Below are positions 5,581-31,853 of a DNA stretch of 36,055 nucleotides, one piece after another. The DNA comes from Paracoccaceae bacterium (lineage in GTDB: Bacteria > Pseudomonadota > Alphaproteobacteria > Rhodobacterales > Rhodobacteraceae). The DNA lies in NCBI GenBank assembly GCA_014879735.1, contig JACSRN010000110.1:1-36055 (forward strand), in the 5' to 3' direction. A program made the translations under genes and the position numbers. The notes under the pieces were generated by a model. That model did no database searches and was not told where the DNA came from. It saw only the letters and a program-made list of their open reading frames with translations. Position 1 is the stretch's first letter. Each line of letters opens with the position of its first letter.

Positions 5581-5597
5581 AAATGGTCGTACCATAT
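5581..5597. promoter_or_regulatory. GntR/FadR-type operator, site 1
   Basis: AAATGGTCGTACCATAT: perfect inner arms ATGGT/ACCAT around three bases. It matches TNGTNNNACNA, the consensus described for the FadR subfamily of GntR regulators, and the AAATGGTCNNACCWWWT motif found five times in this window. It overlaps the inferred -10 of the minus-strand SDR promoter. Confidence 0.7.
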
Positions 5598-5646
5598 TTT
5601 CGTGTGATTTGCAATCGCTTCCTGCAGGGCAAATTCGACCGCTCAC

Positions 5647-5663
5647 AAATGGTCAAACCATTT
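5647..5663. promoter_or_regulatory. GntR/FadR-type operator, site 2
   Basis: AAATGGTCAAACCATTT: a perfect palindrome with 7-bp arms and a 3-bp centre, the best copy of the five. TTGACA begins two bases downstream, in front of the TRAP binding-protein gene. Confidence 0.75.
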
Positions 5664-5802
5664 ACTTGACAGCATGGCCAGCCGTCCGGCAGGTTGCGGA
5701 CCTGACGGATCAGGCACGATTCGGTTTCCCGTGACAGTCGCCTGCATCGGTTCGGCCGTTACCGAGGGAACGGACGAAAACAGATCTGGGAGGAGATCAT
5801 CC

Positions 5803-6816
5803 ATGAGAAAATTCGGATTGACCGCACTTGCACTGCTGTTCGGCACCAGCCTTCTGGCATCGGCCGCACAGGCCGAACGGTTCATCGTCACCACCAACCT
5901 GCCACCATCGCATTGGGGGTCCGTCCAGGGCGGCGTGCCATTTCTGGACTGCGTGAAGACCGCGACCAATGGCGAGGTGGAGTTCGACTATTTCGACAGC
6001 GGCAAGCTGGCCAGCTTCTTCGAATCGCTGAATGCCGTGAATACCGGAATCGCGCAGATCTCCTACATCGTGGTCAGCGCGCAGTCCGACAAGTTGCCGC
6101 TGACCGGGATCACCATGCTGCCGGGCCTGGGCAGCAGCACGGTCGAAATCACCGCCGCCACGCGCAAGGTATTGGAATCCGACACCGAAATTGCCCGCGA
6201 ATATGCGAAGAACCGCATCGTTCCGCTGATGATCAACATCTTCCCCGCCTATCAGATGCTGTCGGTCGGCGCGCCCTTCGACAGCGTCGAGGCCATCAGC
6301 GGCAAGAAGGTCAGCTCCGGTGGCGGGCCGCTGCTGATGACGCTGAACACCCTTGGTGCCAGCGGCCTGGAGATGGCAACCGGCGATCTGTATCTTGCAT
6401 TGCAGCAAGGCACCATCGACGGAACCATGCTGTCGACGACCAGCGTCAAGGCGTACAAGCTGGAGGAGGTGATCAAATCGATCAGCGCGAACGGCAATTT
6501 CGGCACTGCAGCCGGGATCTGGTCGATCGATTCCGACGTCTGGACGACGGTGCCAGACGCGCACAAGACGGCGTTTCTGGACTGCGGCCTGAAGGTCGAG
6601 CAGGATCTGGCAAAATGGGCTGACCAATTTGTCCTGGATACGCAGAGTGACCTGAAAGCGCTGGGGATCGAGGTTTTCGACTTTACCCCCGAGGCACTGG
6701 CGAAGATCGAGGTAAAGCTGGAAGAGACCCGGCAAGTCTATGTCGACCGCTCCGCCTCGCGCGGCATCGACGCCCAGAAGGCCTATGACGAATACATGGA
6801 AATCCTGTCCGAATAG
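5803..6816 (+). CDS. TRAP transporter solute-binding protein (DctP family), orphan
   Basis: A 337-residue periplasmic binding protein with a signal peptide (MRK, hydrophobic stretch, cleavage near SAAQA-ER at about residue 25). The family hallmark GDLYLALQQGTIDG is at residues 194-207. The position where most DctP proteins have the carboxylate-clamping Arg (GxKxR) reads GKKVSSGGG, Ser171 in place of Arg, so substrate recognition may differ. ATG 5803 has GGGAGGAG upstream. No DctQ or DctM membrane gene is next to it or anywhere in the window. It is probably monocistronic, with a GntR-type operator at its promoter. A paralogue is at 24720-25739. Confidence 0.9.
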   Translation: MRKFGLTALALLFGTSLLASAAQAERFIVTTNLPPSHWGSVQGGVPFLDCVKTATNGEVEFDYFDSGKLASFFESLNAVNTGIAQISYIVVSAQSDKLPLTGITMLPGLGSSTVEITAATRKVLESDTEIAREYAKNRIVPLMINIFPAYQMLSVGAPFDSVEAISGKKVSSGGGPLLMTLNTLGASGLEMATGDLYLALQQGTIDGTMLSTTSVKAYKLEEVIKSISANGNFGTAAGIWSIDSDVWTTVPDAHKTAFLDCGLKVEQDLAKWADQFVLDTQSDLKALGIEVFDFTPEALAKIEVKLEETRQVYVDRSASRGIDAQKAYDEYMEILSE

Positions 6817-6832
6817 GCGATGAAACCACCGG

Positions 6833-6861: not shown

Positions 6862-8469
6862 TCAGGACAGGGTCGCGCTGATCATCCCCATCTCGTCGAT
6901 CTCGATCACGCGGGGCAGGGGGCCTGTCTCGGCCAGGCATCTGTCCAGATCGGCAAGATCGCTGATGCGAATGTGCTGCCAGCCATAGCCCTTCGCCAAA
7001 GCGGCAAAATCGGGGCTGTGGATATCGACCCCCAGCGGCGCGATCCCGGCACCCACCATGACATTGCGAATCTCGCCATAGCCGTGGTTGTTCCACAGGA
7101 TCATGGTGATTGCGGCGCCGATCTCGGTCGCGCTGCCCATTTCGGGCAGGGAAAACTGCAGCCCGCCGTCGCCGATCAGGCAGAAGACTGGCCGGTCGGG
7201 GGCTGCGATCCATGCCCCGATCGCGGCCGGCAACCCGTATCCCAGCGTGCCATACCCGGTGGCTGAACTGAAAAAGGCCCCGGTGCGCGGCGGCGCGAAA
7301 ACGGTCAGGCCGGCATAGACCGGCTGGGCGGAATCGCCGATGAAAATGCCGTCCGGGGCATGTCTGGCAAGCTGGTCGAGCAGGGCGCATCCCGCCCGCT
7401 GCACCGGGGTCAATGCATCCGAAACCCTGCCGCGGATCTGCGCCACCCGCCGGGCCGCCGCGCCGGATCTGGGCGCCGCGGGCAGCGCCTGAAGCAGATC
7501 GCCCGCGGCGCTTTCGGCGTCGGCCAGCAGCAGGAGGGCCGGCGCCAGGCCGCGCTGGCCTTGCAACGGATCGATGTCGATGCGGATCACCGGCGCTTTC
7601 GGCGCATCCGGCCCGTCAAGGCTGCGGTCGAAATCGGTAGGGCCAAGCTCGGTTCCGATGGCAAGGATCAGATCCGCGGCTGCAAGCAAATCCGTCACCG
7701 GCGGCAGACAGGCGGCGACCGACAGGCCCAGCGGATGGTCCGGTGCAAGCAGGCCCCGTGCATTGGCGGTCATCAGCACCGGCGCATCCAGCCTTTCGGC
7801 AAGGCCGCGGATCGCATCGCCGGCCCGCAATGCCCCCCCGCCGGCAACGATGACGGGCCGGGCCGCGACGGCACAGAGATCCGCCGCCCGCGCGATGGCC
7901 CAGGGCGGCGCAGCCGGGCGCGCGGGCAGGGTGAACGGCCGCAGCGGGCCGGGCCGGCCGGTGTCGCGCAGCAGCAGATCGACCGGGATCTCGATATGCA
8001 CCGGGCGCGGTCTTGCCCCGGCAAACAGCGAGAACGCCTCGGCCAGAGCTGCGTGCAGATCACAGGGCGTCAGGATCGTGCGGCTGAAGGCCGTCACCTG
8101 CGCCATCAACTGACCCTGATCGGGCAGCTCATGCAGATGGCCGCGTCCAGAACCGATATCCCCCATCCGGCCGACGGTGGAGATGACCAGCATCGGGATC
8201 GAATCGGAATAGGCCTGCGCGATGGCTGTCACCGCATTGGTCAGGCCCGGCCCGGTGATCAGATAGCAGACCCCCGGCTTGCCGCTGACGCGGGCATAGG
8301 CATCGGCCATGAAGCCCGCGCCCTGTTCATGCCGGGGCGTGATGTGGCGCAGCCCGCTGCCGTCCAGCCCGCGATAAAGCTCGATCGTATGGACGCCAGG
8401 AATGCCGAAGACGACCTCGACGCCATTCGCAGCCAGGCAGGCGGCAAGCTCATGTGCAAGCGAGGTCAT
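6862..8469 (-). CDS. ThDP-dependent enzyme, 2-oxoacid decarboxylase/acetolactate synthase-like
   Basis: About 535 residues with the three domains of the acetolactate synthase superfamily. The catalytic Glu is in RHEQGAGFMADAYARVSG, and the ThDP/Mg motif runs from GDGG to NN in GDGGLQFSLPEMG...WNN. The N-terminus (VVFGIPGVHTIELYRGL) recalls 5-guanidino-2-oxopentanoate decarboxylases (AruI type) more than IlvB. An AruI-like enzyme would decarboxylate a 2-oxo acid to an aldehyde; paired with the aminotransferase at 16207 this resembles the arginine transaminase route (inference). Last gene of the minus-strand operon. GAAGG touches the upstream ATG at 8481, so ATG 8469 (MTSLAHELAA) is the better start. 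Confidence 0.85.
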   Translation of the reverse strand: MTSLAHELAACLAANGVEVVFGIPGVHTIELYRGLDGSGLRHITPRHEQGAGFMADAYARVSGKPGVCYLITGPGLTNAVTAIAQAYSDSIPMLVISTVGRMGDIGSGRGHLHELPDQGQLMAQVTAFSRTILTPCDLHAALAEAFSLFAGARPRPVHIEIPVDLLLRDTGRPGPLRPFTLPARPAAPPWAIARAADLCAVAARPVIVAGGGALRAGDAIRGLAERLDAPVLMTANARGLLAPDHPLGLSVAACLPPVTDLLAAADLILAIGTELGPTDFDRSLDGPDAPKAPVIRIDIDPLQGQRGLAPALLLLADAESAAGDLLQALPAAPRSGAAARRVAQIRGRVSDALTPVQRAGCALLDQLARHAPDGIFIGDSAQPVYAGLTVFAPPRTGAFFSSATGYGTLGYGLPAAIGAWIAAPDRPVFCLIGDGGLQFSLPEMGSATEIGAAITMILWNNHGYGEIRNVMVGAGIAPLGVDIHSPDFAALAKGYGWQHIRISDLADLDRCLAETGPLPRVIEIDEMGMISATLS

Positions 8470-8484
8470 CGCGTGGCCCATCCT

Positions 8485-9705
8485 TCAGCGATTGGGATCA
8501 AGCAGGCTGCGACAGGCTTCCGCCAGGGTTTCGCAGCCCAGGATGATGTCGGTTTCGGCGGTATCCTCGGTCCAGTGATGGCTGATTCCGCCGATGCTTG
8601 GCACGAACAGCATTCCCGCGGGCATGACCCCGGCAAGGATCTGGGCATCGTGCCCCGCACCGCTGGGCATCATGGTCCAGCCACCGGGGGCAAGCCGCCC
8701 GGCCGCCGTGGCAAGCGCATTGCGTAGGGGTTCCGCCATGATGCTGGGCTCGGTCCGTGCCGTCATCTCCAGTGTGGCCCTGCAGGTGGGGCCGGCCTCG
8801 ACGGTGATGCGACGGATATCGGCATCGAGGCGATCCAGAACCGCAGGATCGACATCGCGCAACTGCAGGTGCATTTCGGCCAGATCGGGAATGATGCTCA
8901 CCTGACCCGGCTCGACCCGGATGCTGCCGATGGTCCAGACCGTATCGCTGGCGGCATGGGCGCTGAGATGGGCATCGATCCGCGCGGCAAGGGCAATCAG
9001 CGCGCGCGAGGCGTCGCGCCGCCGCGCCATGCTGGTGGTGCCGGCATGATTGCGTTCGCCGTGCAGCGTGATCCGGTACTGGTAGATTCCCACGATTCCG
9101 GTGACGATACCCAGCGCAAGGCCGTTGTCTTCCAGTGTCGCACCCTGTTCGATATGCGCCTCGAGATAGCCGATGTAATCGCCCACCGGCAGCCGTTGGC
9201 GCGGCAATTCGGCAAGGCCCGCCCGTTCCAGGGCGGTGATCAGCGGAAGGCCGGTGGTCGCATCGCGTGCCTCAGCGATTTCGCTCTCGTCCAGTTGCCC
9301 CACTGCCGAGCGGCTGCCGAGGAAACTGGCGAAATGGGCTTCCTCGTCGGACCAGACCACGCAATCCACCGCGCCGGGCAGGCCTTTCTCAAGAAAGCTG
9401 CGGGCGATCTCCAGCCCGAAGATCACCCCCATCGCACCATCGAGCCATCCGGCATGGTTCTGGCTGTCGGAGTGCGATCCGACAAGCAGCCGCGGCCCGG
9501 ACGCCGGGCTGCGGCCCAGGATATTGCCGATCCCGTCGAGTTCAGCCGCAAGACCCGCAGCCGTCATGCGCGCGACCAGCCAGCGCCGTGCGGCCATATC
9601 CTGCGGCGTGAAGGTCGGGCGATGCACGCCGGTCAGGTGGCGGCCAAACTCTGCCAGCTCGTGCAGATCGGCCATCAGCCGCTGTGGATTGATGATTGCA
9701 TCCAT
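8485..9705 (-). CDS. M20-family Zn amidohydrolase, hydantoinase/carbamoylase type
   Basis: A 406-residue metallo-hydrolase of the group with N-carbamoyl-L-amino-acid hydrolase, allantoate amidohydrolase and beta-ureidopropionase. Metal ligands can be placed: His78 in GSHSDS, Asp89 in WLDGAMGV, the acidic pair in WSDEEAHFAS (E121/E122), His184 in LEAHIEQG, and the late His in MPSGAGHDAQ. HAGTTSMARRRDA is the substrate-carboxylate loop of the dimerisation domain. It would cleave a carbamoyl or acyl-amide group from an amino acid in the cytoplasm. ATG 9705 lies nine bases after the ABC ATPase stop, so it shares that transcript. Confidence 0.9.
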   Translation of the reverse strand: MDAIINPQRLMADLHELAEFGRHLTGVHRPTFTPQDMAARRWLVARMTAAGLAAELDGIGNILGRSPASGPRLLVGSHSDSQNHAGWLDGAMGVIFGLEIARSFLEKGLPGAVDCVVWSDEEAHFASFLGSRSAVGQLDESEIAEARDATTGLPLITALERAGLAELPRQRLPVGDYIGYLEAHIEQGATLEDNGLALGIVTGIVGIYQYRITLHGERNHAGTTSMARRRDASRALIALAARIDAHLSAHAASDTVWTIGSIRVEPGQVSIIPDLAEMHLQLRDVDPAVLDRLDADIRRITVEAGPTCRATLEMTARTEPSIMAEPLRNALATAAGRLAPGGWTMMPSGAGHDAQILAGVMPAGMLFVPSIGGISHHWTEDTAETDIILGCETLAEACRSLLDPNR

Positions 9706-9714
9706 GAAACGGCC

Positions 9715-11351: not shown

Positions 11352-11379
11352 TCCGCGTCCCCTGCGACCCCCGGGCGCC

Positions 11380-12219: not shown

Positions 12220-12271
12220 GTCAACTCCTGTTGGTTCTTGGTCTCGTTGGGTCTTGGTCGCGTGATTGGGG

Positions 12272-13186: not shown

Positions 13187-13205
13187 TTGGTCGTCCTGAT
13201 CTGGC

Positions 13206-13219
13206 TGGAGTCAACTTTA
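13206..13219. promoter_or_regulatory. TetR-type operator, site 1
   Basis: TGGAGTCAACTTTA, 12 of 14 bases matching the TAGAGTCAACTCTA palindrome shared by three sites around the tetR gene. It lies just upstream of the deacetylase-like gene. Confidence 0.6.
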
Positions 13220-13277
13220 ACGTCGGGCGCCGCTTGAAGGTTTCCCGTTGCGATGCAATAGTTGCCACGATGCATTT

Positions 13278-13291
13278 TAGTGTCAACTCTA
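13278..13291. promoter_or_regulatory. TetR-type operator, site 2
   Basis: TAGTGTCAACTCTA, 13 of 14 bases of the shared palindrome. It overlaps the minus-strand -35 and lies in the spacer just before the tetR -10. Confidence 0.7.
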
Positions 13292-13364
13292 AATTTATAC
13301 TCAAACCCAGATCGCCGCCAGAATCTGATCGATCCGGTCTGGCGGATGCATGCAGGAGGACCAT

Positions 13365-13994: not shown

Positions 13995-13996
13995 TT

Positions 13997-22215: not shown

Positions 22216-23706
22216 TCAGCTGCTGATGTAGACGCTCTTGGTGGCGAGATAGGCCTCGACATGGGCACGGCTGCCCTTGATGCCGTAGCCGCTGTTCTTC
22301 ACCCCGCCAAAGCCGACCATCGGATCGATGAGGCCGTAGCAGTTCACCCACATCGTGCCGGTGCGTATGCTTTTGACGACCTGCAACGCGCTGTCGATGT
22401 TGCGCGACCAGACGGCACCGCCCAAGCCGTATTCGGTCCGGTTGCCCAGCTGGATTGCCTCCTCCACGGTATCGAAGGGAATCACCGATATCACGGGGCC
22501 GAAGATTTCCTCGCGGGCGATGGTCATGTCGTTATGGACATTGCCGAATACCGTCGGGCGCACGTAATAGCCGCCGGCCGGCGACCCCTCGGGGCGGTTG
22601 CCGCCGCCTGCAAGCTGCGCGCCCTCGGCCGGGGCGATGCCGATGTAATGCATGACCCGCTCCAGTTGCGCCCGCGAGACCAGCGGGCCAAGCTGGCTTG
22701 TGCTGTCGAAGGCATGACCCACGGCGATACCCGCGGCATGTGCCGCCAGCCGTTCCGTCACCTCCTGCACGATGCTGCGGTGCACGAATACCCGCGAACC
22801 TGCAAAGCACACCTGGCCCGAGTTGGTGAAAACGCCCATGGCGGCGCCGGGGACGGCCTTGTCCAGATCGGCGTCGGCCAGGATGATGTCGGGCGATTTG
22901 CCGCCAAGTTCCAGTTGCAGGCGTTTCATGTTCACGGCCGAGGCCTCGATGATCCGCCGGCCTGTGGCGGTCGAGCCGGTGAAGGCCACGCGATCCACGT
23001 CGGGATGGGCCGCCAGCCTTGCACCCGCAACGGCGCCGGTGCCGGTGACGACATTGACGACGCCATCGGGCAGGCCGATCTCATGCAGCATCTGGACCAC
23101 GCGCAGAACGCTGAGCGAGGCGTCCTCGGCAGGTTTCATGACCACGGTGCAGCCGGCCGCCAGCGCCGCCCCGAGGATCCACCACTGGCTGATCAGCGGC
23201 CCGTTCCACGGGATGATGCCGCCCACCACTCCGACCGGCGACTTGAGGGTGAGGGTCGTCACATTGCCGGCCAGCGAATTCTGCATCGTCTCGCCGGTCA
23301 CATTCACCGCCTGTGAGGCGAAGAACAGGATCATCTGCAGCACGGCGTTCTTCATGGCGCGGGTACGGCTGATCGGCGCGCCCATGTCGGCCGATTCGAT
23401 CTGCGCCAGTTCTTCGTAATGCGCCGACAGATGGTCATGCGCGCGGATCAGCAGCAATTGCCGTTGATACGGGGTCCAGCGGCTCCAACTGCCCTCGAAC
23501 GCCGCGCGGGCAGCAGCGACGGCACGGTCGACATCCTCCGGACCACCTGCGGCCAGCCGGGTCAGGACCTGCCCGGTCGAGGGATCGAAGCTGTCAATGC
23601 TTTGCCCCGACAATGCGGGCGTCTCGCGGCCGTCGATCAGCAAGCCATGTTCGACACGCGACAGGAAGGCGGCGGCCGCCGAATTCAGCGGCTCAAGCTT
23701 GGTCAT
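22216..23706 (-). CDS. NAD(P)-dependent aldehyde dehydrogenase
   Basis: A 496-residue member of the aldehyde dehydrogenase superfamily. Asn168 in PWNGP, Lys191 in VVMKPAEDAS, FTGSTATG, general base Glu266 in LELGGKSP, and nucleophile Cys300 in NSGQVCFAGSR are all present. It oxidises an aldehyde to the acid; NSGQVC is common in broad-range betaine-, phenylacetaldehyde- or aminobutyraldehyde-type enzymes. It lacks the CoA-acylating features of MmsA. Third gene after the TRAP binding protein and the 3-hydroxyisobutyrate-dehydrogenase-like gene (27-base gap), so likely under the same GntR-type control. Confidence 0.93.
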   Translation of the reverse strand: MTKLEPLNSAAAAFLSRVEHGLLIDGRETPALSGQSIDSFDPSTGQVLTRLAAGGPEDVDRAVAAARAAFEGSWSRWTPYQRQLLLIRAHDHLSAHYEELAQIESADMGAPISRTRAMKNAVLQMILFFASQAVNVTGETMQNSLAGNVTTLTLKSPVGVVGGIIPWNGPLISQWWILGAALAAGCTVVMKPAEDASLSVLRVVQMLHEIGLPDGVVNVVTGTGAVAGARLAAHPDVDRVAFTGSTATGRRIIEASAVNMKRLQLELGGKSPDIILADADLDKAVPGAAMGVFTNSGQVCFAGSRVFVHRSIVQEVTERLAAHAAGIAVGHAFDSTSQLGPLVSRAQLERVMHYIGIAPAEGAQLAGGGNRPEGSPAGGYYVRPTVFGNVHNDMTIAREEIFGPVISVIPFDTVEEAIQLGNRTEYGLGGAVWSRNIDSALQVVKSIRTGTMWVNCYGLIDPMVGFGGVKNSGYGIKGSRAHVEAYLATKSVYISS

Positions 23707-23733
23707 CCGAAGGCTCCCGATGAAAGTTGCGGG

Positions 23734-24633
23734 TCACAGACTGTGGTTTTCGGGCACGACATGGGTGCCACAAAGACTGTCCATCATCAGCGCGGCGGCA
23801 TTGACCTGCGTGTCGTAGCTGTAGGCATTCATCGCCATCTGCAGGAAATTCTTGGCCACATCGCCGAACTGCATGGCCACGCCGGTTTCGGCGCCAAGCT
23901 GGCAGGCCAGTTTCACATCCTTGTGCAACAGGCCGAGCGTGAACCCCGACGGCAGATTTCCGCTGACGATATGTTTCTCGAACATGAGTTCGGTAAAGAA
24001 GTTACGGCCGGATCCCTTGTTGATGATCTGTACCGCCCGACCGGCATCGACACCGTTCTTTACCGCCAGCGCAACTGCCTCCATCGCGACAAAGCGCTGC
24101 GCCGCAGACAGCATGTTGTTTGCCAGCTTGATCACATTGCCGGTGCCGATTTCGCCGGCACGAACGACATTCGGGCTGATCTTGTGCAGCAGGGGCGCCG
24201 CGCGCGCATAATCCTCGGCCGGGCCGCCAACCATGATGGCGATTGTGCCGGCCTCGGCGCCCACTGGGCCACCGCTGACCGGTGCGTCCAGCATCGACAC
24301 ATCCGCCTGCCGCAGCCGGCGGGCCAGCGCGCGGGTGACGGAAGGATCGCCCGTGGTCTGGTCGATCACGATGGCGCCGGGCCGCAGATGGCGGGCCAGA
24401 TCGCCCCTGCCATAAAGCAGATCCTCGACATGTTGCGATGTGGGCAGGCAGAGCATGACCGTCATGCAGGATGCCGCGACCTCGGCCCCGCTGCCCGCGG
24501 CCTGCGCACCTGCCGCAACCAGCCGTCCGACCGCGGCTGCGTTCATGTCATAGACCGTCAGCGGTTCCGCCAACTGCAGCCTGCGCGCGAGCGCGCCGCC
24601 CATGCTGCCAAGACCGATGTAACCGACCGCCAT
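23734..24633 (-). CDS. 3-hydroxyisobutyrate dehydrogenase-like beta-hydroxyacid dehydrogenase
   Basis: A 299-residue NAD(P)-dependent enzyme. The N-terminal Rossmann motif is GYIGLGSMGGALA. The substrate motif DAPVSGGPVGAEAGTIAIMVGG and the catalytic Lys in GTGNVIKLANNM are typical of 3-hydroxyisobutyrate, tartronate semialdehyde and L-threonate dehydrogenases. It oxidises a beta-hydroxy acid to a semialdehyde, which the neighbouring aldehyde dehydrogenase could take further. ATG 24633 is nine bases after GGAAGG; ATG 24642 abuts it and is less likely. Located between the TRAP binding-protein and aldehyde dehydrogenase genes. Confidence 0.92.
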   Translation of the reverse strand: MAVGYIGLGSMGGALARRLQLAEPLTVYDMNAAAVGRLVAAGAQAAGSGAEVAASCMTVMLCLPTSQHVEDLLYGRGDLARHLRPGAIVIDQTTGDPSVTRALARRLRQADVSMLDAPVSGGPVGAEAGTIAIMVGGPAEDYARAAPLLHKISPNVVRAGEIGTGNVIKLANNMLSAAQRFVAMEAVALAVKNGVDAGRAVQIINKGSGRNFFTELMFEKHIVSGNLPSGFTLGLLHKDVKLACQLGAETGVAMQFGDVAKNFLQMAMNAYSYDTQVNAAALMMDSLCGTHVVPENHSL

Positions 24634-24665
24634 TGCGGGCATCCTTCCATCTCTTGCCGCGGGGA

Positions 24666-24687
24666 CTGCCGCCGCATCCGGCGGCAG
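24666..24687. other. Stem-loop between the TRAP and dehydrogenase genes
   Basis: CTGCCGCCG (24666-24674), loop CATC, CGGCGGCAG (24679-24687): a perfect 9-bp stem in the 86-bp gap inside the operon. It could act as a partial terminator or mRNA stabiliser, leaving more binding protein than enzyme; such arrangements are common after binding-protein genes. Confidence 0.5.
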
Positions 24688-24719
24688 CCCGCGTGCATAA
24701 CCCCCTAGTTCCTCTCGGT

Positions 24720-25739
24720 TTATTCTGGCAGCGCCGCCCGAAGTGCATCATAGACGGCCTGGGCGTCCGGCGCGCGCTCCTTGATCCGTTCCAGGAATTC
24801 CAGCGCGGCAGCCTCCTTGTAGCCGTCCAGCGTTTCAAGGTCGGCGGCCGAGAACTCGAAGGCTTCAACATCGTTCTGGCGCAGGCGTTCGACGGTGCGG
24901 GCGACTTCTGCCTCCAGAAACCGGGCCACATTGTCTTCGGCCTGGGCAGCGCAGGCGGCAAAGGTTTCCTGACCAGTGGCATCCAGCTCGTTCCAGCGAT
25001 CCAGCCGCATCACCACCAGCCCGGCGGTCTGTGCCAGGTCGGCGTTCAGGCTGACGCTGCGCAGGACATCGTCCAGTTGATACGAGGTCACGCCGGTGAT
25101 CGGCAACGTTGCCGCATCCAGCGTGTTCTGCTGCAGTGCCATGTAGATGTCGCCAGGCGGCATCTGGATCGGCAATGCACCCATATGGGTATAGAGCGGG
25201 AAGAAGGCGCCGCCGGCGATCCGCACCTTGATGCCCTGCATCTCGGCCAGGGATTGCGGCGCATCGCGGTTCAGCAGAATCTGGCTGAGCGGATAGGGAT
25301 TGTACATCAGCGCTTTGAGGCCGACCGCCGCAAGTTCGTCATCCAGGGCGGTGGTCTCGCTTCGGACCGTGCGATAGGCCTGCAGGCTTTCGGTCGGCGT
25401 CCCTGATGTGCCGGGCAGGGTCGTCACGCTTTGCAGCGGCAGTTCGGACGACACCAGGCCGACGCTGAACAGCACGATGTCCATGACCCCGCTGCGGATC
25501 GAGTCGTAGGATTGCTGATAGGACGCAATCTGCCCGCCCGGGAAATAGTTGAAGCCGATCTGGCCCGCCGACCTTTCCTCGACGCAACGCATGAAGACCA
25601 TGTCCATTTCCGACGACGCGAAATGTGTCGTGGGTTCGGGCTCGGAGAAGATGAAGGTCTGGGCGCCGGCGCCGGATGCGCCGAGAAGCAGGGCCGCGAA
25701 TACACCGATCCGCGCCCCGAGATGTTTCGTGACAGTCAT
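24720..25739 (-). CDS. TRAP transporter solute-binding protein (DctP family), second orphan
   Basis: A 339-residue periplasmic binding protein with a signal peptide (cleavage near ASGAGA-QT, residue 26). GDIYMALQQNTLDA parallels GDLYLALQQGTIDG of the paralogue at 5803. Here the carboxylate-clamping Arg is kept (GIKVRIAGG, R173), so a carboxylate ligand is expected. GGGAGGACCT lies before ATG 25739. No DctQ/DctM genes are in the window; the membrane part must be encoded elsewhere. It leads an operon with a beta-hydroxyacid dehydrogenase and an aldehyde dehydrogenase and has a GntR-type operator over its inferred -10. Confidence 0.9.
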   Translation of the reverse strand: MTVTKHLGARIGVFAALLLGASGAGAQTFIFSEPEPTTHFASSEMDMVFMRCVEERSAGQIGFNYFPGGQIASYQQSYDSIRSGVMDIVLFSVGLVSSELPLQSVTTLPGTSGTPTESLQAYRTVRSETTALDDELAAVGLKALMYNPYPLSQILLNRDAPQSLAEMQGIKVRIAGGAFFPLYTHMGALPIQMPPGDIYMALQQNTLDAATLPITGVTSYQLDDVLRSVSLNADLAQTAGLVVMRLDRWNELDATGQETFAACAAQAEDNVARFLEAEVARTVERLRQNDVEAFEFSAADLETLDGYKEAAALEFLERIKERAPDAQAVYDALRAALPE

Positions 25740-25828
25740 AGGTCCTCCCTGAAGCTTCACATCCGTGACATCGGCACGCATCGGGCCCGGCGATGATCAT
25801 CTATTCGGCGCGCCGACGATGTGATGCG

Positions 25829-25845
25829 AATAGGTTAGACCATTT
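25829..25845. promoter_or_regulatory. GntR/FadR-type operator, site 3
   Basis: Read on the minus strand: AAATGGTCTAACCTATT, matching AAATGGTCNNACCWWWT. It overlaps the inferred -10 of the TRAP binding-protein promoter, the same arrangement as site 1 and the SDR gene. Confidence 0.65.
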
Positions 25846-25961: not shown

Positions 25962-25978
25962 AAATGGTCCGACATTAT
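25962..25978. promoter_or_regulatory. GntR/FadR-type operator, site 4
   Basis: AAATGGTCCGACATTAT. The left arm is exact, the right arm degenerate. TTGACA starts at 25978, at the same phase as in sites 2 and 5. Confidence 0.6.
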
Positions 25979-26077: not shown

Positions 26078-26170
26078 ATGATTGCATCGAACATCTGGCC
26101 CGGGACCCCGCCGGAAAAGGATGCCAAGATGATACCGCAGGACCGGCAACGCGGATCCGTGACCCGATGA
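26078..26170 (+). CDS. Short upstream ORF (30 aa) overlapping the MFS start
   Basis: ATG 26078 after AGGAACAGACCGGG opens 30 codons, MIASNIWPGTPPEKDAKMIP and ten more residues, ending with a TGA that overlaps the MFS ATG (ATGA, 26167-26170). The MFS gene has no good Shine-Dalgarno of its own, so translational coupling is plausible. No similarity recognised. Confidence 0.35.
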   Translation: MIASNIWPGTPPEKDAKMIPQDRQRGSVTR

Positions 26171-27348
26171 CTGCGGCTGCAGGACAGCGCGAGATGCTCG
26201 TGGCCTTTGCCGCCGGACTCGTGACCTTCTCCTTGCTCTATGCGCCGCAGCCCGTGCTTCATCTGATCGCGGCGCGGTACGATATTCCACCGCAAAGCAG
26301 TTCGCTGACCATTTCGCTGCCGACCGCCATGCTGTCGGGCGCGTCCTTGCTGCAGCTTTTCATCGGACGCGGTCTGAACCCGGCGCGGCTGGTACCTGTA
26401 GCGCTGACCCTGGCCGCCCTGGCAAATCTGCTGGGGATGCTGTCGCCCAGCTGGCACCTGCTGCTTGCGGCGCGGGTTCTGACCGGGGTTCTGATCGGCA
26501 TCGTCCCCTCGGCAATGATGACCTTTCTGGCCGTTCACATCGCACCCGAGCGGATGGGCCGGGCCATGTCGACCTATGTCGCTGGAACCGGGGCAGGCGG
26601 TCTTCTGGGCCGGCTGGCCGCGGGCACGCTGTCGACAGACGGCCACTATGCATCGGCACTGATGATGACAAGCCTGATTTCGCTGATCATTTCGGTCACG
26701 TTGTTCTTCATGTTTCCTCCTGCCTCCCCCTCCCCTGCCCCGACGGCCGCGCCGCGGCGGCGCGTCGATCCGGCGGGCCTGCGTCGCGCCCTGGTCACGC
26801 CGTCGGTGGCAAGTGTCTATCTGATCGGGTTCCTGCTCATGTCGGCCTTTGTGGGCATCTTCAACTATCTGCCCTTCCTGTTGTCCTCGCCCCGGTTCGG
26901 CCTTTCGCAATCCAGCCTGACCTTTGCCTTCCTGCCGATGGCAACAGGAATCGTCGCGGTGCCGATATTCGGCCGCCTCTATGATCGGCTTGGTCCGCGA
27001 CGGATGCTCTGCTTTGCATTTGCGATGATTGGCGGCGGCGGGTTGCTGACCCTGTCGGACCGGCTGGAACTGCTGTTCCCGGGCCTGGTCATCGTGGCAC
27101 TTGGCGCCTTCGCCGGGCATAGTTCCGCCAGCGCCACGCTTGGGCGACAGTCGCAGGTCGACAAGGCCTATGCCTCGTCCTTCTATTTCTGCTTCTACTA
27201 TCTGGGCTCCAGTGTCGCGGGCTATGTCACCGGCATATTCTACGATTCCGGCGGCTGGCCGATGATCGTTACGGTCATGGCCGGGCTGAGCCTGACCGGC
27301 ATTTTGCTGACCCTGACCACGCAGCCGGCCGCCCGAAGGGCATGTTGA
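26167..27348 (+). CDS. MFS transporter
   Basis: A 393-residue membrane protein with about twelve hydrophobic segments in two halves joined by a Pro/Ala/Arg-rich loop (PPASPSPAPTAAPRRR, near residue 187). RLYDRLGPRRML in the second half is the typical cytoplasmic loop of major facilitator proteins. The overall look (LLYAPQPVLHLIA start, single-chain sugar/drug-like) is of the YnfM type. It could import the pathway acid or export a product. The MmgE/PrpD gene follows by 32 bases. Its promoter carries operator site 4. Confidence 0.9.
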   Translation: MTAAAGQREMLVAFAAGLVTFSLLYAPQPVLHLIAARYDIPPQSSSLTISLPTAMLSGASLLQLFIGRGLNPARLVPVALTLAALANLLGMLSPSWHLLLAARVLTGVLIGIVPSAMMTFLAVHIAPERMGRAMSTYVAGTGAGGLLGRLAAGTLSTDGHYASALMMTSLISLIISVTLFFMFPPASPSPAPTAAPRRRVDPAGLRRALVTPSVASVYLIGFLLMSAFVGIFNYLPFLLSSPRFGLSQSSLTFAFLPMATGIVAVPIFGRLYDRLGPRRMLCFAFAMIGGGGLLTLSDRLELLFPGLVIVALGAFAGHSSASATLGRQSQVDKAYASSFYFCFYYLGSSVAGYVTGIFYDSGGWPMIVTVMAGLSLTGILLTLTTQPAARRAC

Positions 27349-27380
27349 TCCCCCCACCCCGTGCAAACCTACAGGCAGAC

Positions 27381-28709
27381 ATGACGAAGACAGATCAGTT
27401 CGGCAAGGATCTCGCGCGGTTCGCGCTTGCCCCGGCGCCCGATGTGCCGCGCTTTTATACAACGGCAATGCTGAACTGGCTGGGTTGCGCCATGGCAGGG
27501 GCGCGGCAATCGGCAACAGCCCGGGTCGCGGCCTATTGCCTGACGCAGGCGCAATCTGGTCTGCGCCCCCCAATCGGCCGTAGCGAAAGACTGGTAGCCC
27601 CGGCGGCCGTGCTGGTCGACTGCCTCTCCTCGGCCAGCCTTGCCTATGATGACATTCACTTTGAAACCACCCTGCATCCCGCAGGGCCGGTCGCCGCGGC
27701 GATCTTTGGCCTTGCGCGGGTCGAGACCATTCCCGGCGATCTGGCGCTTGCCGCATTCCGCGTCGGGATGGAGGTTGAATGTCGCAGCGCGCTTGCGATG
27801 TTCGCGGGAACGGCCGGCGGGGCGCGGGGCTGGTATGCCACGGGATTGACCGGCGGGCTTGGCGCGGCGGCGGCGGTGGGGCGGCTGATGCGTCTGGACC
27901 AGCCGCAGATGGAGGCGGCGCTGGGTCTGGCTGCAGCGCGGGCGGGCGGAACACGGGGCACCCACGGCTCGATGGCGGCGCATGTGGTGCCCGGCCTGGC
28001 GGCGGAAAGCGGCTTTGTGGCCGCCGGCCTGGCGCGCACTGGGTTCAGCTGCGGGATCGGCGCCCTGACGGGCGCGAACGGTCTTCTGCGCCTTGTCGCC
28101 GGCGAGCCGGATCTGGATCTGGCTGGTGCTGGCCTTGGCGAAAGCCATGTCTGCGAGGCGACGGCCTGCAAGCCCTATCCCTTCGGCTTCATCGCCCATG
28201 CCACCATCAGATGCTGCCTCGACCTTGCCGCCCTGCCGCGCCAGAATACCGCAGGGCCGGTCCGGATCGAACTGTCGGTTTCTCCGACCGCGGCGCTGCT
28301 GGGCGGCAATCCAATGCCCGCCACCGTGTTCGAAGCGCATGTGGCGTTGCGCTATATCGCGGCCCGGGTTCTGACGGATCCCAGGCTTGCTTTCGAACCG
28401 CTGGATGAGGATTTCGTGGTTCGCGCCGATATTGCCGCCATGATGCCGCGGATCGAGATCACTGCCGATCCGCGGCTGGCCGATGCGCAGGCTGTCTGCA
28501 CGGCAGTCCTTGCCAACGGCCGCAGGATCGAGATCCGCTGCGACGAAGCGCCCGGCTCACCCGGAAATCCGCCGGGTGCCGATGAGACGGAAGCCAAGTT
28601 CCTGCGCCTTGTCACCCCGGTCATTGGCACCGATCGAGCCGACGCATGGCAGGCGGCGGTGGCGGGGATGGCGGATTGTCAGGATATCTCCCGCCTTCTC
28701 GCGCCCTGA
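27381..28709 (+). CDS. MmgE/PrpD-family protein
   Basis: A 442-residue member of the family that holds 2-methylcitrate dehydratase (PrpD), cis-aconitate decarboxylase and iminodisuccinate epimerase. Seen: an N-terminal helical part with LNWLGCAMAGAR, SASLAYDDIHFETTLHPAGPVAAA (the active-site DDxH...HPG region), and CKPYPFGFIAHATIRC for the Lys/Tyr/His segment of the helical domain. It acts on tricarboxylates or similar multi-carboxylic acids in the cytoplasm. ATG 27381 preferred; ATG 27342 overlaps the MFS stop but has GAAGGG too close. Such a gene also sits in the P. aeruginosa itaconate locus. Confidence 0.9.
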   Translation: MTKTDQFGKDLARFALAPAPDVPRFYTTAMLNWLGCAMAGARQSATARVAAYCLTQAQSGLRPPIGRSERLVAPAAVLVDCLSSASLAYDDIHFETTLHPAGPVAAAIFGLARVETIPGDLALAAFRVGMEVECRSALAMFAGTAGGARGWYATGLTGGLGAAAAVGRLMRLDQPQMEAALGLAAARAGGTRGTHGSMAAHVVPGLAAESGFVAAGLARTGFSCGIGALTGANGLLRLVAGEPDLDLAGAGLGESHVCEATACKPYPFGFIAHATIRCCLDLAALPRQNTAGPVRIELSVSPTAALLGGNPMPATVFEAHVALRYIAARVLTDPRLAFEPLDEDFVVRADIAAMMPRIEITADPRLADAQAVCTAVLANGRRIEIRCDEAPGSPGNPPGADETEAKFLRLVTPVIGTDRADAWQAAVAGMADCQDISRLLAP

Positions 28710-28733
28710 TACCGGCCAATGGTCCGGTATCAG
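28706..28733. terminator. Strong two-way terminator hairpin
   Basis: CTGATACCGG (28706-28715) and CCGGTATCAG (28724-28733) form a perfect 10-bp stem with an 8-base loop exactly between the convergent MmgE/PrpD and HpcH/HpaI genes, covering both stop codons. No T-run, but placement strongly suggests termination in both directions. Confidence 0.75.
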
Positions 28734-29581
28734 CGTCCGCCGCTCTGGCGCATCACCTGATCGGCGAGCATCCGGTCCATGAACGAGAATTCGGGATTGC
28801 GCGGATCCGCATCCATGATGATCTGCGCGCGTTCGACCTCGGCCATGGAGGGGCAGATATTGTCGCGAACGGCCGGCAGATGCCGGGGCGAAACCGCGAT
28901 GCAGGCGGTATAACCGCTGTCGCGCCAGCTGCGGACGAAGCGCGCCACCTTGTCCATGTCGCGGAAATCCGGGATCAGCGATCCCCCGGTGGAGAGGATC
29001 TGTCGCGACGCCGCGGCCGCGGCAATCTGCGCGCGCGGCCCCGTCATCGCCGGGCAGGACAGATCGTCGCCGCCAGGCGAAAAGATCCGGCACCCCACGT
29101 CCAGCCCATAGTCGATATAGCCAAAATGCACGCCCACCACGCAGTCCATGGCAAGAATTTCGTCAATCGCCCGCAGGCCGCGATAGCTTTCGATCATCAC
29201 ATGAAAGCTGCGGCTGCGCCCACCCTCGGCGGCAATCGCCGCCGCCCGGGCCAGTTCGGCCGCAGATTCCAGTTTTGGATAGCACAGAACCAGATCGGCG
29301 GGATGCGCGCCAAGCGCCTGCAGATCCCGAGCCCCCCAGGCCGAGGCCAGATTGTTGACCCGGACAAGCGGGGTCTTTCCGGCCATCACCGTCTCGCGCG
29401 CCAGGATCTGCAGCAGCTTTTCGCGCGCATGGTCTTTCAGGTCGGCCGGAACCGAATCCTCCAGATCCAGCATGATCCCGTCGCAGTGCAGGTGCGGGAT
29501 CTTGGGCCAGTAGACGTCGTTGACGATCGGCACTTCAAGAAAACTTCTGTGCCGGCGGTAGGAAATGCGGGCTGTTGTCAC
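28730..29581 (-). CDS. HpcH/HpaI-family aldolase / CoA-ester lyase, first
   Basis: A 283-residue TIM-barrel lyase of the CitE/HpcH group. IMLDLEDSVPADLKDHARE (Mg- and CoA-site region), LVRVNN, HVMIESYRGL with a metal-binding Glu, and VHFGYIDYGLDVG with a metal-binding Asp are present. Such enzymes split citramalyl-, malyl- or related 3-hydroxyacyl-CoA esters, or 2-keto-3-deoxy acids. The C-terminal part after GGSLIP differs from the CitE-like gene at 30737, so the two are not recent duplicates. GTG 29581 has AAGAGAG upstream; a TTG at 29599 has no ribosome site. Last gene of a four-gene minus-strand operon. Confidence 0.88.
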   Translation of the reverse strand: MTTARISYRRHRSFLEVPIVNDVYWPKIPHLHCDGIMLDLEDSVPADLKDHAREKLLQILARETVMAGKTPLVRVNNLASAWGARDLQALGAHPADLVLCYPKLESAAELARAAAIAAEGGRSRSFHVMIESYRGLRAIDEILAMDCVVGVHFGYIDYGLDVGCRIFSPGGDDLSCPAMTGPRAQIAAAAASRQILSTGGSLIPDFRDMDKVARFVRSWRDSGYTACIAVSPRHLPAVRDNICPSMAEVERAQIIMDADPRNPEFSFMDRMLADQVMRQSGGR

Positions 29582-29627
29582 GATTGGCTCTCTTGGCAAT
29601 GCTGACGGGGCGGGCCGTGGCCCGGGA

Positions 29628-29954
29628 TCAGCGGATCGGGGAAAAGGCGGTGGGTGTCAGGATCTCGTTGGACATGAGGTCCACCAGCATCCCGTCGCGC
29701 TCGCTGTCTTCACGGGCCCGGTTCCACTCCGGGTCTTCGCGAAAGGCTGCCCAGCACGCCATCCGCTGATCAAGCGAATCCCAGCGCAGCAGGTACATCA
29801 ACTCTGGCCGCCGCGGCCCGAATTCGGTGATGAAGAACCCCAGCGGCGTGAAGCCGTGCTTCTTGAACAGCGCAAGCGTTGCCGTCTCGAAACGGTGAAG
29901 CAGCGCCGGCAGGCGGCCGGGCAGACAGTGATAAGTGCAGCGCTCGATATACAT
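29628..29954 (-). CDS. NIPSNAP-family protein
   Basis: A 108-residue protein beginning MYIERCTYHCLPGRLPALLHRFE, with GFTPLGFFITEFGPRRPELMYLLRWDSLDQR, the typical NIPSNAP pattern of a dimeric alpha-beta barrel. Family members often accompany catabolic enzymes, but their function is unknown; a small-molecule-binding or helper role is possible. ATG 29954 lies seven bases after the SDR stop, with TAGGCTG as ribosome site. Confidence 0.87.
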   Translation of the reverse strand: MYIERCTYHCLPGRLPALLHRFETATLALFKKHGFTPLGFFITEFGPRRPELMYLLRWDSLDQRMACWAAFREDPEWNRAREDSERDGMLVDLMSNEILTPTAFSPIR

Positions 29955-29961
29955 GATCAGC

Positions 29962-30699
29962 CTATACGCAAAGATATCCGCCATCGACCGGAAGGGTGGC
30001 GCCGTTGATGTAGCTGGCGGCATCCGAGGCAAGGAACACGATGGCCTCGGCAATCTCGCGCGGCTGGCCAAGACGCTTCATCGGCGTATGGATATCCATC
30101 CAGCTTTTCACATCGCCAAGGTTGTTGCCCAGCATCGGCGTCTCGATGTAGCCCGGCGCGACGCAGTTCACCCGGATTCCGAACGGCGCCAGTTCGCGGC
30201 ACAACTGCCGCGTCAGCCCGATCACGCCGGCCTTCGAGGCTGCATAGCCCGCCTCGGCAAAGCCGCTGCGCTCGCCCACCACCGAGGAGACGTTGACGAC
30301 GACGCCCTTGCCAGAGGCTTTCAACTGCCCGATGCAGCCGTGAACCATGTTGAAGCTGCCGGTCAGGTTGATGTCGATGTTCCGGTCCCAACCCGCACCC
30401 GAGGCCGCATCGCCGATCTGAGATCGTCCGGCCACGCCAGCACAATTCACCACGAGCGTGACAAGCCCGTGCTGGTGCCTGACCTTCTCCAGCGCCGTCC
30501 CGCATTCCTCGCGGTTCGTCACGTCGAGACTCAACTGGAACGCCTCGTAGCCCGAGCCGGTCAGTTCTGCCACCCGGTCGATCGCCAGCGGGGTGTTCAG
30601 GTCCGCGATGCCCACGCGATAGCCGGCGCAGGCCAGCAACTGCGTCGTGGCAAACCCTATTCCGCTTGCGCCGCCGGTAATGATCGCGACCTTTGTCAT
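29962..30699 (-). CDS. Short-chain dehydrogenase/reductase (SDR), second
   Basis: A 245-residue classical SDR: TGGASGIG cofactor motif, VNCAGVAG, Ser in NVSSVVGERSG, Tyr-Lys in AGYAASKAG, and C-terminal PVDGGYLCV. ADLNTP after the second strand suggests NAD(H). It would oxidise a hydroxyacyl intermediate to a ketone or the reverse. GGGGAGGGG precedes ATG 30699. It lies 37 bases after the CitE-like gene and directly before NIPSNAP, in one operon. It is only distantly like the SDR at 4733. Confidence 0.93.
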   Translation of the reverse strand: MTKVAIITGGASGIGFATTQLLACAGYRVGIADLNTPLAIDRVAELTGSGYEAFQLSLDVTNREECGTALEKVRHQHGLVTLVVNCAGVAGRSQIGDAASGAGWDRNIDINLTGSFNMVHGCIGQLKASGKGVVVNVSSVVGERSGFAEAGYAASKAGVIGLTRQLCRELAPFGIRVNCVAPGYIETPMLGNNLGDVKSWMDIHTPMKRLGQPREIAEAIVFLASDAASYINGATLPVDGGYLCV

Positions 30700-30736
30700 C
30701 GGTCCCCTCCCCTTCCTGCCTTGAATGTGTCGCCCG

Positions 30737-31630
30737 TCAGGCCGTTGCGAAGCTGGCATGCAGCGACAGCACGTTGCGCGCCTGAACCAGATGCGGAATG
30801 TCCAGCATCTGCCCGTCCAGCCCGACCGTGCCCGCCCCATCGGCTGCAGCGAAGGCGGCAACCACACGTTCGGCGAGGCGAACTTCGTCGGGACCGGGCA
30901 TGAAGGCTGCGTTGATGCCATCCACCTGTGCCGGATGGATGGCGAAGCGTGCCGAGAAACCTTCGCGCCGCGCTTCGACGCAGCTGGCATAAAGCCCTTC
31001 GGCATCCCTGAAGTCGACATAGAGCGTCTCGACGCATTTCACGCCTGCAGCCTTGGCGCCAAGAAGGCACTGGCTGCGCACCATCCGGTAGGTGAATGCC
31101 CATTCACCATCCGGCGTCTTGTTCGTGGCGGCACCGATCGCGCTGCTCAGATCCTCGGCGCCCCAGGTCAGGCCCCACAGGCGGCGCAGATCGTGCCTGG
31201 CGTAATCGCCCAGGGCGAAGGGCGCGGCTGCGGTTTCGGTCGCCACCGCAAGGATGCCTATCGTATCGTCCTGCAACCCGCGGGCTGCGGCCAAGGCGTC
31301 GATGTAGTTGGTCACGGTCTGGACATCATTGGGACCGGTGCATTTCGGCAGCAGGATACCCGCCAGCGCCGGGCCCACGACGGCACAGAGGTCAGCCAGC
31401 GCGAGCCCGGTGGTCAAGGGATTGATCCGCACCCACAGTGCACCGCCGTATCCGGATGGAGGCGCATCGAGTAGTGTCGCCAGCGCTGCCCGGGCCTCGG
31501 CCTTGCGCGACGGCATCACCGAATCTTCCAGATCCAGAACCAGAGCATCGGCGGCGGACTGCAGCGCCTTGGCGATTTTTCTCTCGCTGTCGGCTGGCAC
31601 GAACAGGAACGATCTTATGGGTCTTGTCAT
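30737..31630 (-). CDS. HpcH/HpaI-family CoA-ester lyase (CitE-like), second
   Basis: A 297-residue CitE-like lyase: RSFLFVPADSERKIAKAL at the start, ADALVLDLEDSVMPSRK, LWVRINP, ILLPKCTGPNDV, the metal-binding VATETAAAP and GAEDLSSAIGA, and late FAIHPAQVDGINAAFMP. This is the pattern of (S)-citramalyl-CoA, malyl-CoA and beta-methylmalyl-CoA lyases, which release acetyl-CoA and pyruvate or glyoxylate. GGGAGAGGCCG precedes ATG 31630. First gene of the minus-strand operon, divergent from the CoA transferase operon; together they could activate and finally split a C5 acid. Confidence 0.93.
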   Translation of the reverse strand: MTRPIRSFLFVPADSERKIAKALQSAADALVLDLEDSVMPSRKAEARAALATLLDAPPSGYGGALWVRINPLTTGLALADLCAVVGPALAGILLPKCTGPNDVQTVTNYIDALAAARGLQDDTIGILAVATETAAAPFALGDYARHDLRRLWGLTWGAEDLSSAIGAATNKTPDGEWAFTYRMVRSQCLLGAKAAGVKCVETLYVDFRDAEGLYASCVEARREGFSARFAIHPAQVDGINAAFMPGPDEVRLAERVVAAFAAADGAGTVGLDGQMLDIPHLVQARNVLSLHASFATA

Positions 31631-31853
31631 CGGCCTCTCCCGGGGACGTCACGGAATGTGGCGGCGTTTTCCTGCGGCACCGGATGGCCGCAGATAGGTT
31701 TGGGCACCGCCTGCAGAAAACAGCTTTACACCTTTGGAAAAGAAATGCAAGAAATGGTCAGGCCTAATATTGACGCCGTTGCGCCGCAGGATCATGTCTT
31801 GGGACAGGGGCGCATCGGATGCGGGCCGAGCCGCGATTCTGGGGAGGGAACGG
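31631..31853. promoter_or_regulatory. Divergent promoter region of the CitE-like and CoA transferase operons
   Basis: 223 bases. It holds an inverted repeat CTGCGGC (31672-31678) / GCCGCAG (31687-31693), GntR-type operator site 5, and a -35-like TTGACG (31770-31775) for the plus-strand operon. I see no second operator for the minus-strand side. Confidence 0.55.
31752..31768. promoter_or_regulatory. GntR/FadR-type operator, site 5
   Basis: AAATGGTCAGGCCTAAT, with a perfect left arm and a diverged right arm. TTGACG starts at 31770, one base after it, the same operator/-35 phasing as sites 2 and 4. Confidence 0.6.

What the first reader, a model, noticed from the sequence alone, without database searches (positions are those of the whole stretch)
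5581..31768. Five copies of a 17-bp operator link scattered catabolic operons into one GntR/FadR-type regulon
AAATGGTCNNACCWWWT occurs at 5581-5597, 5647-5663, 25829-25845 (minus), 25962-25978 and 31752-31768, only in promoter regions as far as I could see. The position is patterned: sites 2, 4 and 5 abut a TTGAC(A/G) -35 within -1 to +2 bases in front of plus-strand genes, while sites 1 and 3 overlap an inferred -10 of minus-strand promoters with a TTGC(A/G)(A/C) -35 17 bp upstream. The motif fits TNGTNNNACNA, the FadR-subfamily consensus. It joins two TRAP binding proteins, SDR/hydrolase, ALDH/dehydrogenase, MFS/PrpD and CoA transferase/ACAD genes. No GntR gene is in the window. An operator centred near -47 could mean activation as well as repression.
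Basis: partly seen in the sequence, partly recalled or inferred. Interest (0 to 1): 0.75.

Follow-up and report, generated by a model that had tools for sequence, protein, structure and literature searches.

The report
GntR-family regulon with its regulator found
Short, near-mirror-image DNA switches in front of scattered breakdown and uptake genes all appear to be read by one GntR-type control protein, whose gene sits on another piece of the same genome next to more copies of the switch; this is an ordinary kind of bacterial regulation, but a so far undescribed and comparatively large example.

Summary
The five sites are real, but the stated consensus fits only three exactly (two have one mismatch), and a sixth copy lies inside a gene. 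A genome-wide search with a consensus from the window sites put the next-best matches on one other contig, C186. There they flank an FCD/FadR-subfamily GntR gene, the DctQM membrane parts missing beside the window's TRAP binding proteins, and MaoC-BKACE-thiolase and amidohydrolase genes. Of 30 FCD loci, only this one carries a strong site. Two other genera hold a regulator of 59-68% identity with the same 17-bp sites and much of the gene set; none of 12 congeners has an orthologue. I link 25 genes in 11 putative operons. TTGAC lies in two registers: just after the site (9 of 56 site-sides, 0.48 expected) or 39-45 bases before its end, so that the site covers the -10 (7 of 56). Most likely a metal-containing FCD regulator senses an organic acid, represses where the site covers the -10, and possibly activates from beside the -35. 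Substrate unknown. Known kind, new member.

The parts
5581..5597 (-). operator 1, over the presumed -10 of the SDR/hydrolase promoter (minus strand)
   Evidence: similar layout by eye at G258:C35:3260
5647..5663 (+). operator 2; TTGACA -35 begins 2 bases after it, in front of dctP1
   Evidence: same layout at G258:C35:3497
25829..25845 (-). operator 3, over the presumed -10 of the dctP2-HIBADH-ALDH promoter
25962..25978 (+). operator 4 (one mismatch to the stated consensus); overlaps the TTGACA -35 by one base, in front of MFS-PrpD
31752..31768 (+). operator 5 (one mismatch to the stated consensus); TTGACG -35 one base after it, in front of CaiB2-ACAD-CoA transferase; divergent CitE operon on the other side
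6613..6629 (+). sixth good match, inside dctP1; not conserved in G258, probably incidental
3885..5488 (-). alpha/beta hydrolase and SDR genes, presumed target of operator 1
5803..6816 (+). dctP1, TRAP substrate-binding protein (PF03480), presumed target of operator 2
22216..25781 (-). ALDH, 3-hydroxyisobutyrate-dehydrogenase-like gene and dctP2, presumed target of operator 3
26167..28709 (+). MFS and MmgE/PrpD genes, presumed target of operator 4
28730..31630 (-). HpcH/HpaI, NIPSNAP, SDR and CitE-like lyase genes, divergent from operator 5; linked by position only
31854..35622 (+). CaiB-type CoA transferase, acyl-CoA dehydrogenase and acetyl-CoA hydrolase/transferase C-domain genes, presumed target of operator 5
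544..3842 (+). CaiB1, EstB/beta-lactamase-fold, FAS1-type and MaoC dehydratase genes: found with the regulon in G258 (74-82% identity) but their promoter would lie beyond the contig end

Best explanation
The 17-bp palindromes (AAATGGTC-N-GACCATTT type) are operators of one local regulator: the FCD/FadR-subfamily GntR protein encoded at C186:8966-9709 in the same genome. SHOWN BY SEQUENCE: the best-matching sites cluster on the window contig and C186, lie between genes (one exception at 6613), stand in front of the regulator's own gene, and recur with an orthologous regulator and many of the same targets in two other genera. The regulator keeps the LPxER...SRxxxREA DNA-binding segment and an Asn-x3-His...His...His metal-site pattern. 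INFERRED: a dimer binds each palindrome. It blocks RNA polymerase where the operator covers the -10. At a second set of promoters it binds just upstream of the -35, where it may activate or block. A metal-bound organic acid, probably a pathway intermediate, releases or tightens it. The regulated genes form a TRAP/MFS uptake and CoA-dependent breakdown route that includes beta-keto acid cleavage by a BKACE.
For: Genome-wide: with AAATGGTCNNACCATTT and up to 3 mismatches, 26 distinct sites lie outside the window, 5 of them on C186 (0.93% of that DNA; P about 4e-6); the six distinct sites with at most 2 mismatches (one of them the intragenic 6613) are all on C201 or C186. A matrix from the five window sites alone scores the five C186 sites 16.8-24.8; apart from two weak neighbours (13.4, 12.6), the best other score on C186:1-40000 is 10.8. 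Regulator: of 30 FCD loci (about 3 kb each, some cut by contig ends) only the C186 one holds a strong site (21.4; next 13.35). Conservation: the palindrome pattern WWWWGGHNNNDCCWWWW gives 12 sites in the genome, 9 of them these operators; 5 of 7 in G208 (Alterinioella nitratireducens) lie on the regulator contig, and 11 of 13 in G258 lie on C35 (regulator) or C36 (more of the gene set). The relatives carry the regulator at 68% and 59% identity. 13 of 15 site-linked window genes have a match at the G258 locus, against 0 of 8 unlinked interior genes tested. Protein: FCD and GntR domains over cut-off; HTH aligns with PdhR, LldR and NanR; Asn-x3-His, +44, +66 in 3 of 3 orthologues, the spacing of Ps5454 (PMC7674646, passages). 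Negative control: 12 congeners lack an orthologue (best hit 35% identity) and show 83 scattered pattern matches, no three within 50 kb by eye in the listing, which was cut in the last genome.
Against: No binding or expression data. Total numbers of matches are not raised over the reversed-pattern controls (12, 7 and 13 sites against 9, 9 and 7); the evidence is in where they lie. The bare core TGGTCNNACCA is not enriched: 21 strand-matches against 38 for its reversed control, on many contigs. 6613 is in a coding region. 25962 has a degenerate right arm and is missed by the looser pattern. One other asymmetric match, C1:174781, scores 18.7. The matrix used to pick G208 and G258 sites includes the C186 sites; G208 shows the -35-adjacent register at none of its five sites. 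C186 and the window contig are not shown to be physically joined. ALDH and HIBADH have no match at either relative's locus, and G208 lacks dctP1, dctQM and the amidohydrolase there.
Confidence: 0.87

Rival explanations
1. The same regulator acts as a pure repressor at every promoter; the -35-adjacent sites merely block access of sigma factor or RNA polymerase.
For: In 7 site-sides the site covers the presumed -10. DgoR, a metal-containing FCD protein, represses from operators overlapping its promoter (PMC7674646, passages incl. abstract). -35-adjacent promoters have a good TTGAC, which activated promoters often lack (recalled), and their -10 hexamers (2-4 of 6 matches) are hardly weaker than those of the other class (3-4 of 6). 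Two promoters are bracketed by an upstream and a downstream site 39 and 40 bp apart, one of the four sites being weak.
Against: -35-adjacent sites lie where activators often bind (recalled). FCD proteins that activate exist, such as CitO (PMC4746285, passages), and E. coli FadR does both (PMC3460868, passages).
Confidence: 0.5
2. The palindrome is read by another regulator (one of the other FCD proteins or an unrelated factor) and its presence beside the C186 GntR gene is coincidental.
For: The TKGT-N3-ACMA core is shared across the FadR subfamily (PMC4494728, section 10) and the genome has 30 FCD matches.
Against: No other FCD locus examined carries a strong site. Site cluster and this GntR orthologue occur together in three genera and neither was seen in 12 congeners.
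Confidence: 0.06
3. The repeats are chance, promoter sequence or a dispersed repeat without regulatory role.
For: AT-rich intergenic DNA in a 65% G+C window favours such words; pattern totals per genome are near those of the reversed controls; one good copy is intragenic.
Against: 12 matches against 1.39 expected in the window, clustering in three genomes and the same layout at dctP1 in G258.
Confidence: 0.02

Closest known systems
LldR / PdhR / GlcC-type FadR-subfamily GntR regulators
   Same: GntR plus FCD domains; TKGT-N3-ACMA palindrome; sites in front of the regulator gene; organic-acid metabolism
   Different: Only 82-97 bits to these NCBIfam models, whose cut-offs are 301-330, so not an orthologue. 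About 25 linked genes here, against averages of 4.4 (LldR), 5.8 (GlcC), 6.9 (FadR) and 7.3 (PdhR) in PMC5343134 (table passages).
E. coli FadR
   Same: Palindrome with GT and AC 3 nt apart and a TGGTC core (recalled); FadR both represses and activates (PMC3460868, passages)
   Different: FadR has no metal site (PMC7674646, passage); targets here are not the fad genes; 53 bits against cut-offs of 189 and 249
DgoR, CitO, Ps5454 (metal-containing FCD regulators)
   Same: Asn or Asp plus His metal site; the Ps5454 residues Asn144, His148, His192, His214 have the same spacing
   Different: Effector unknown here
Paracoccus denitrificans BKACE15 (8RIO) and the phloroglucinol TAL cluster
   Same: The regulon's BKACE is closest to 8RIO among solved structures (E 5.7e-140) and passes the NCBIfam 3,5-dioxohexanoate model (528 against 430 bits)
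   Different: BKACE15's role is stated to be unknown (PMC11961710, passages). The ring-opening 'cyclase' of the phloroglucinol cluster (PMC10470551, passages) is not on C186 or the window contig; the three PF04199 matches lie on C113, C155 and C10.

Membership tests
FadR subfamily of GntR regulators (regulator) | N-terminal GntR winged helix (PF00392) and C-terminal FCD domain (PF07729) | tested here: met
   61.4 and 92.9 bits, over cut-offs of 27 and 24.3
FadR subfamily of GntR regulators (operator) | A/T-rich palindrome with TKGT/ACMA boxes, GT and AC usually 3 nt apart | tested here: met
   Alignment of 15 sites (10 own genome, 5 L064; the 13 of G258 not included): G5, G6, C12 invariant; T4, C8, C13 at 90% or more. 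Definition from PMC4494728
FadR subfamily of GntR regulators (regulon) | sites in front of the regulator and its targets, conserved across genomes | tested here: met
FadR subfamily of GntR regulators | dimer binds the operator and an effector changes binding | not testable with these tools
   needs protein and DNA
metal-containing FCD group | Asn/Asp-x3-His and two later His at conserved spacing | tested here: met
   3 of 3 orthologues, +44 and +66; Ps5454 Asn144, His148, His192, His214. Metal itself not tested
NanR, LldR, PdhR, GlcC or FadR orthologue | score over the curated NCBIfam cut-off | tested here: not met
   NanR 111.7 against 260; PdhR 96.5 against 330; LldR 88.9 against 311; GlcC 82.4 against 301; FadR 53.2 against 189
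anaerobic-type phloroglucinol cluster | cyclase-family cyclohydrolase beside a BKACE-type lyase and phloroglucinol reductase | tested here: not met
   no PF04199 match on C186 or C201; the reductase was not tested

The most novel reading that the evidence does not exclude
One FCD regulator controls an undescribed CoA-dependent degradation route of about 25 genes through two fixed operator registers: over the -10 for repression, and abutting the -35 (centre near -46) for activation, with some promoters bracketed by both at 39-40 bp. The route supplies the missing physiological role of BKACE15-type beta-keto acid cleavage enzymes.
Probability: 0.22. Interest if true: 0.55.

Novelty: new member of a known kind. 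Interest (0 to 1): 0.42.

Why it matters
It turns five sites seen by eye into a named candidate regulator with a testable target list, and groups genes that lie on separate contigs (two TRAP binding proteins without membrane parts, a remote DctQM pair, CoA transferases, a BKACE). It gives a genetic context for BKACE15-type enzymes, whose role is stated to be unknown (PMC11961710, passages), and a clear case for testing whether operator position decides between activation and repression in the FadR subfamily.

Tried and rejected
Intragenic site 6613 as a functional operator: not conserved in the G258 dctP orthologue; left out of the register counts. The weak sites C186:8743 (12.7) and 8881 (15.3) were also left out of the 28-site set, whose weakest member scores 15.4.

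C1:174781 (score 18.7) as a regulon member: it lies behind a gene that reads as adenosylhomocysteinase and ahead of a TonB-receptor-like ORF (names from reading), and is asymmetric; probably unrelated. C155:26219 and C14:43 were not pursued beyond an ORF list of the first.

Bare core TGGTCNNACCA as a search motif: 21 strand-matches against 38 for its reversed control; the A/T-rich arms are needed.

Phloroglucinol degradation as the pathway: suggested by the 3,5-dioxohexanoate model for the BKACE; no cyclase-family gene at the loci. Itaconate-type pathway: the CitE-like lyases reach 86 and 143 bits against the 375 cut-off of RipC. Neither adopted.

More orthologues: GntR at E <= 1e-60 was found in 1 of 390 (order sample) and 1 of 385 (class sample) genomes, both times the own genome; the samples may overlap, and only the best few candidates per genome were scored. 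On plasmids, 20 of 20 records with a match were below 60% identity; not followed up.

Literature: seven searches answered. Judged by listed titles and abstract starts, I saw no paper on this regulon; most hits were not opened, so this is weak evidence of absence.

A structure prediction was not made.
Full report
OBSERVATION. All five sites are present at the stated coordinates. The stated consensus fits three exactly; 25962 and 31752 each have one mismatch. Allowing three mismatches, the window holds 12 strand-matches against 1.39 expected, and 0 of 100 shuffles reached 12. A sixth good copy at 6613-6629 lies in the coding region of dctP1. The five listed sites lie in the roughly 7% of the window that is non-coding (gene table drawn up by hand).

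REGULATOR. In the whole genome (4.39 Mb, 201 contigs) the consensus AAATGGTCNNACCATTT with up to 3 mismatches gives 44 strand-matches against 24 for the reversed control. The six distinct sites with at most two mismatches, 6613 among them, are all on the window contig C201 or on C186. Outside the window there are 26 distinct sites, 5 of them on C186, which is 0.93% of that DNA (P about 4e-6). The bare core TGGTCNNACCA is not enriched (21 strand-matches against 38 for its reversed control). A matrix built from the five window sites alone scores the C186 sites at 83, 5289, 5344, 8558 and 8782 between 16.8 and 24.8; two weaker neighbours, 8881 and 8743, score 13.4 and 12.6. These sites flank a cupin gene; a MaoC-BKACE-thiolase-Gfo/Idh-SDR gene row; an amidohydrolase gene; DctQ-DctM; and a GntR gene at 8966-9709. 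The GntR protein has GntR and FCD domains over cut-off. The window has two dctP genes but I saw no dctQM there; C186 supplies such a pair. Of 30 FCD loci in the genome (about 3 kb each, some cut by contig ends), only this one has a strong site (21.4; next 13.35; median 8.8). The window has no FCD gene. One off-cluster match, C1:174781, scores 18.7 with the ten-site matrix and is asymmetric.

CONSERVATION. The regulator recurs at 68% identity in Alterinioella nitratireducens (Paracoccaceae; L064, which I take to be the same locus as G208:C13 because contig length and position agree) and at 59% in G258. It was found in 3 of 295 genomes of a family sample including the own one, only the own one in the order (390) and class (385) samples, and as an orthologue in 0 of 12 congeners. 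With the pattern WWWWGGHNNNDCCWWWW, written after seeing the own-genome and L064 sites, the own genome has 12 sites (9 are these operators; a tenth, C186:40296, repeats C14:43 near a contig end; 25962 is missed), G208 has 7 (5 on the regulator contig) and G258 has 13 (7 on C35 with the regulator, 4 on C36 with more of the gene set). Totals are not raised over the reversed controls (9, 9 and 7); it is the clustering that is unusual: P about 3e-14, 8e-10 and 6e-18 under uniform placement, with C36 added to the G258 locus after the fact. G258 is the one genome whose sites were not used to write the pattern. The 12 congeners have 83 matches in all; in the listing, cut in the last genome, I saw no three within 50 kb. 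At the G258 locus 13 of 15 site-linked window genes have a match (dctP2 only at 32%; ALDH and HIBADH absent); at the G208 locus 9 of 15 do (SDR1 only as a 34% paralogue). Of 14 interior genes of the window, 8 were tested: 0 of 8 in G258 and 1 of 8 in G208 (an ABC ATPase at 37%). Of 10 C186 genes, 9 match in G258 and 6 in G208. dctP1 relatives at E <= 1e-70 occur in 2 of 295 genomes, both with the regulator; G208 has the regulator without dctP1.

PROMOTER GEOMETRY. In 28 strong sites (5 window, 5 C186, 5 G208, 13 G258; 6613, 8743 and 8881 left out), 56 site-sides were checked for TTGAC, whether or not a gene follows. It starts -1 to +2 bases after the site in 9 of 56, against 0.48 expected from the other positions. 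A second group, offsets -45 to -39, has 7 of 56, four of them at -39; there the presumed -10 overlaps the left arm of the operator, as TATGGT or AATGGT in 3 of 7. Three others lie at -32, -27 and -26, in or near the spacer. Some sides share one TTGAC (G258 10770/10810 and 3309/3343; C186 5289/5344), and C186:83 on the minus strand faces the contig end, so the counts are not fully independent. -10 hexamers match TATAAT at 2-4 of 6 in the first class and 3-4 of 6 in the second. dctP1 has the -35-adjacent layout in G258 too, and the SDR operon there looks alike by eye. At C186:8782/8743 (the second weak) and G258:C35:10810/10770, an upstream and a downstream site bracket one TTGAC promoter at 39 and 40 bp. 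G208 shows no -35-adjacent site.

MECHANISM. The HTH segment aligns with PdhR, LldR and NanR and keeps the arginines of LPxER and SRxxxRE; that such arginines contact the operator G rests on PMC4494728 (section 10 read; position numbering not mapped) and recall. The FCD domain keeps Asn-x3-His with further His at +44 and +66 in 3 of 3 orthologues, the spacing given for Ps5454 in PMC7674646 (passages). Such proteins bind carboxylates with the help of a metal, as in DgoR (repressor) and CitO (activator, PMC4746285 passages). I infer an organic-acid effector. Repression at sites over the -10 is likely; activation at -35-adjacent sites is possible, at about even odds.

PATHWAY. By family the regulon joins TRAP and MFS uptake, a CaiB-type and an acetyl-CoA-hydrolase-type CoA transferase, ACAD, a MaoC hydratase, HpcH/CitE-like lyases, thiolase and BKACE, with a second CaiB and two more dehydratases in the row whose promoter is beyond the contig end. 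I count 25 genes in 11 putative operons, four of these genes by divergence only. The BKACE passes the 3,5-dioxohexanoate model and is closest to BKACE15 of P. denitrificans, whose role is unknown (PMC11961710, passages). The cyclase family of the phloroglucinol ring-opening enzyme is absent from both contigs. I do not name a substrate.

VERDICT. A new, rare and comparatively large regulon of a known kind. On checking I lowered the main odds slightly (0.88 to 0.87) and the novel case (0.25 to 0.22), because the pattern totals equal their controls and the -10 matches do not separate the two promoter classes.

Noticed in passing
window 1-69 and 35987-36055: The two ends of the contig are identical for 69 bases in inverted orientation and both read into the 3' part of an aldo/keto reductase gene (the left one tested by Pfam): the assembly probably broke inside a pair of AKR paralogues, whose 5' ends and promoters are missing.
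   Followed up: partly
window 6862-21700: Interior block (TPP enzyme over the NCBIfam cut-off for 5-guanidino-2-oxopentanoate decarboxylase, M20-type hydrolases, ABC transporter, TetR-like, aminotransferase, FadB-like; most names read from the sequence) has no operator, and 8 of 8 genes tested have no match at the G258 locus: a separate cluster lying inside the regulon.
   Followed up: partly
L064 8017-9704; G258:C35 about 12.9-14.6 kb: A gene pair that reads as electron-transfer flavoprotein carries the operator in front of it in both relatives, suggesting a dedicated ETF for the regulon's acyl-CoA dehydrogenase.
   Followed up: no
window 5803-6816: dctP1 reads KVSSGGG where dctP2 reads KVRIAGG, that is, it lacks the arginine usual in carboxylate-binding TRAP proteins (recalled), so its ligand may differ.
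   Followed up: no
G000:C186:40296 and G000:C14:43: The same palindrome-like 17-mer sits near the ends of two contigs, perhaps an overlap that would join C186 to C14.
   Followed up: no
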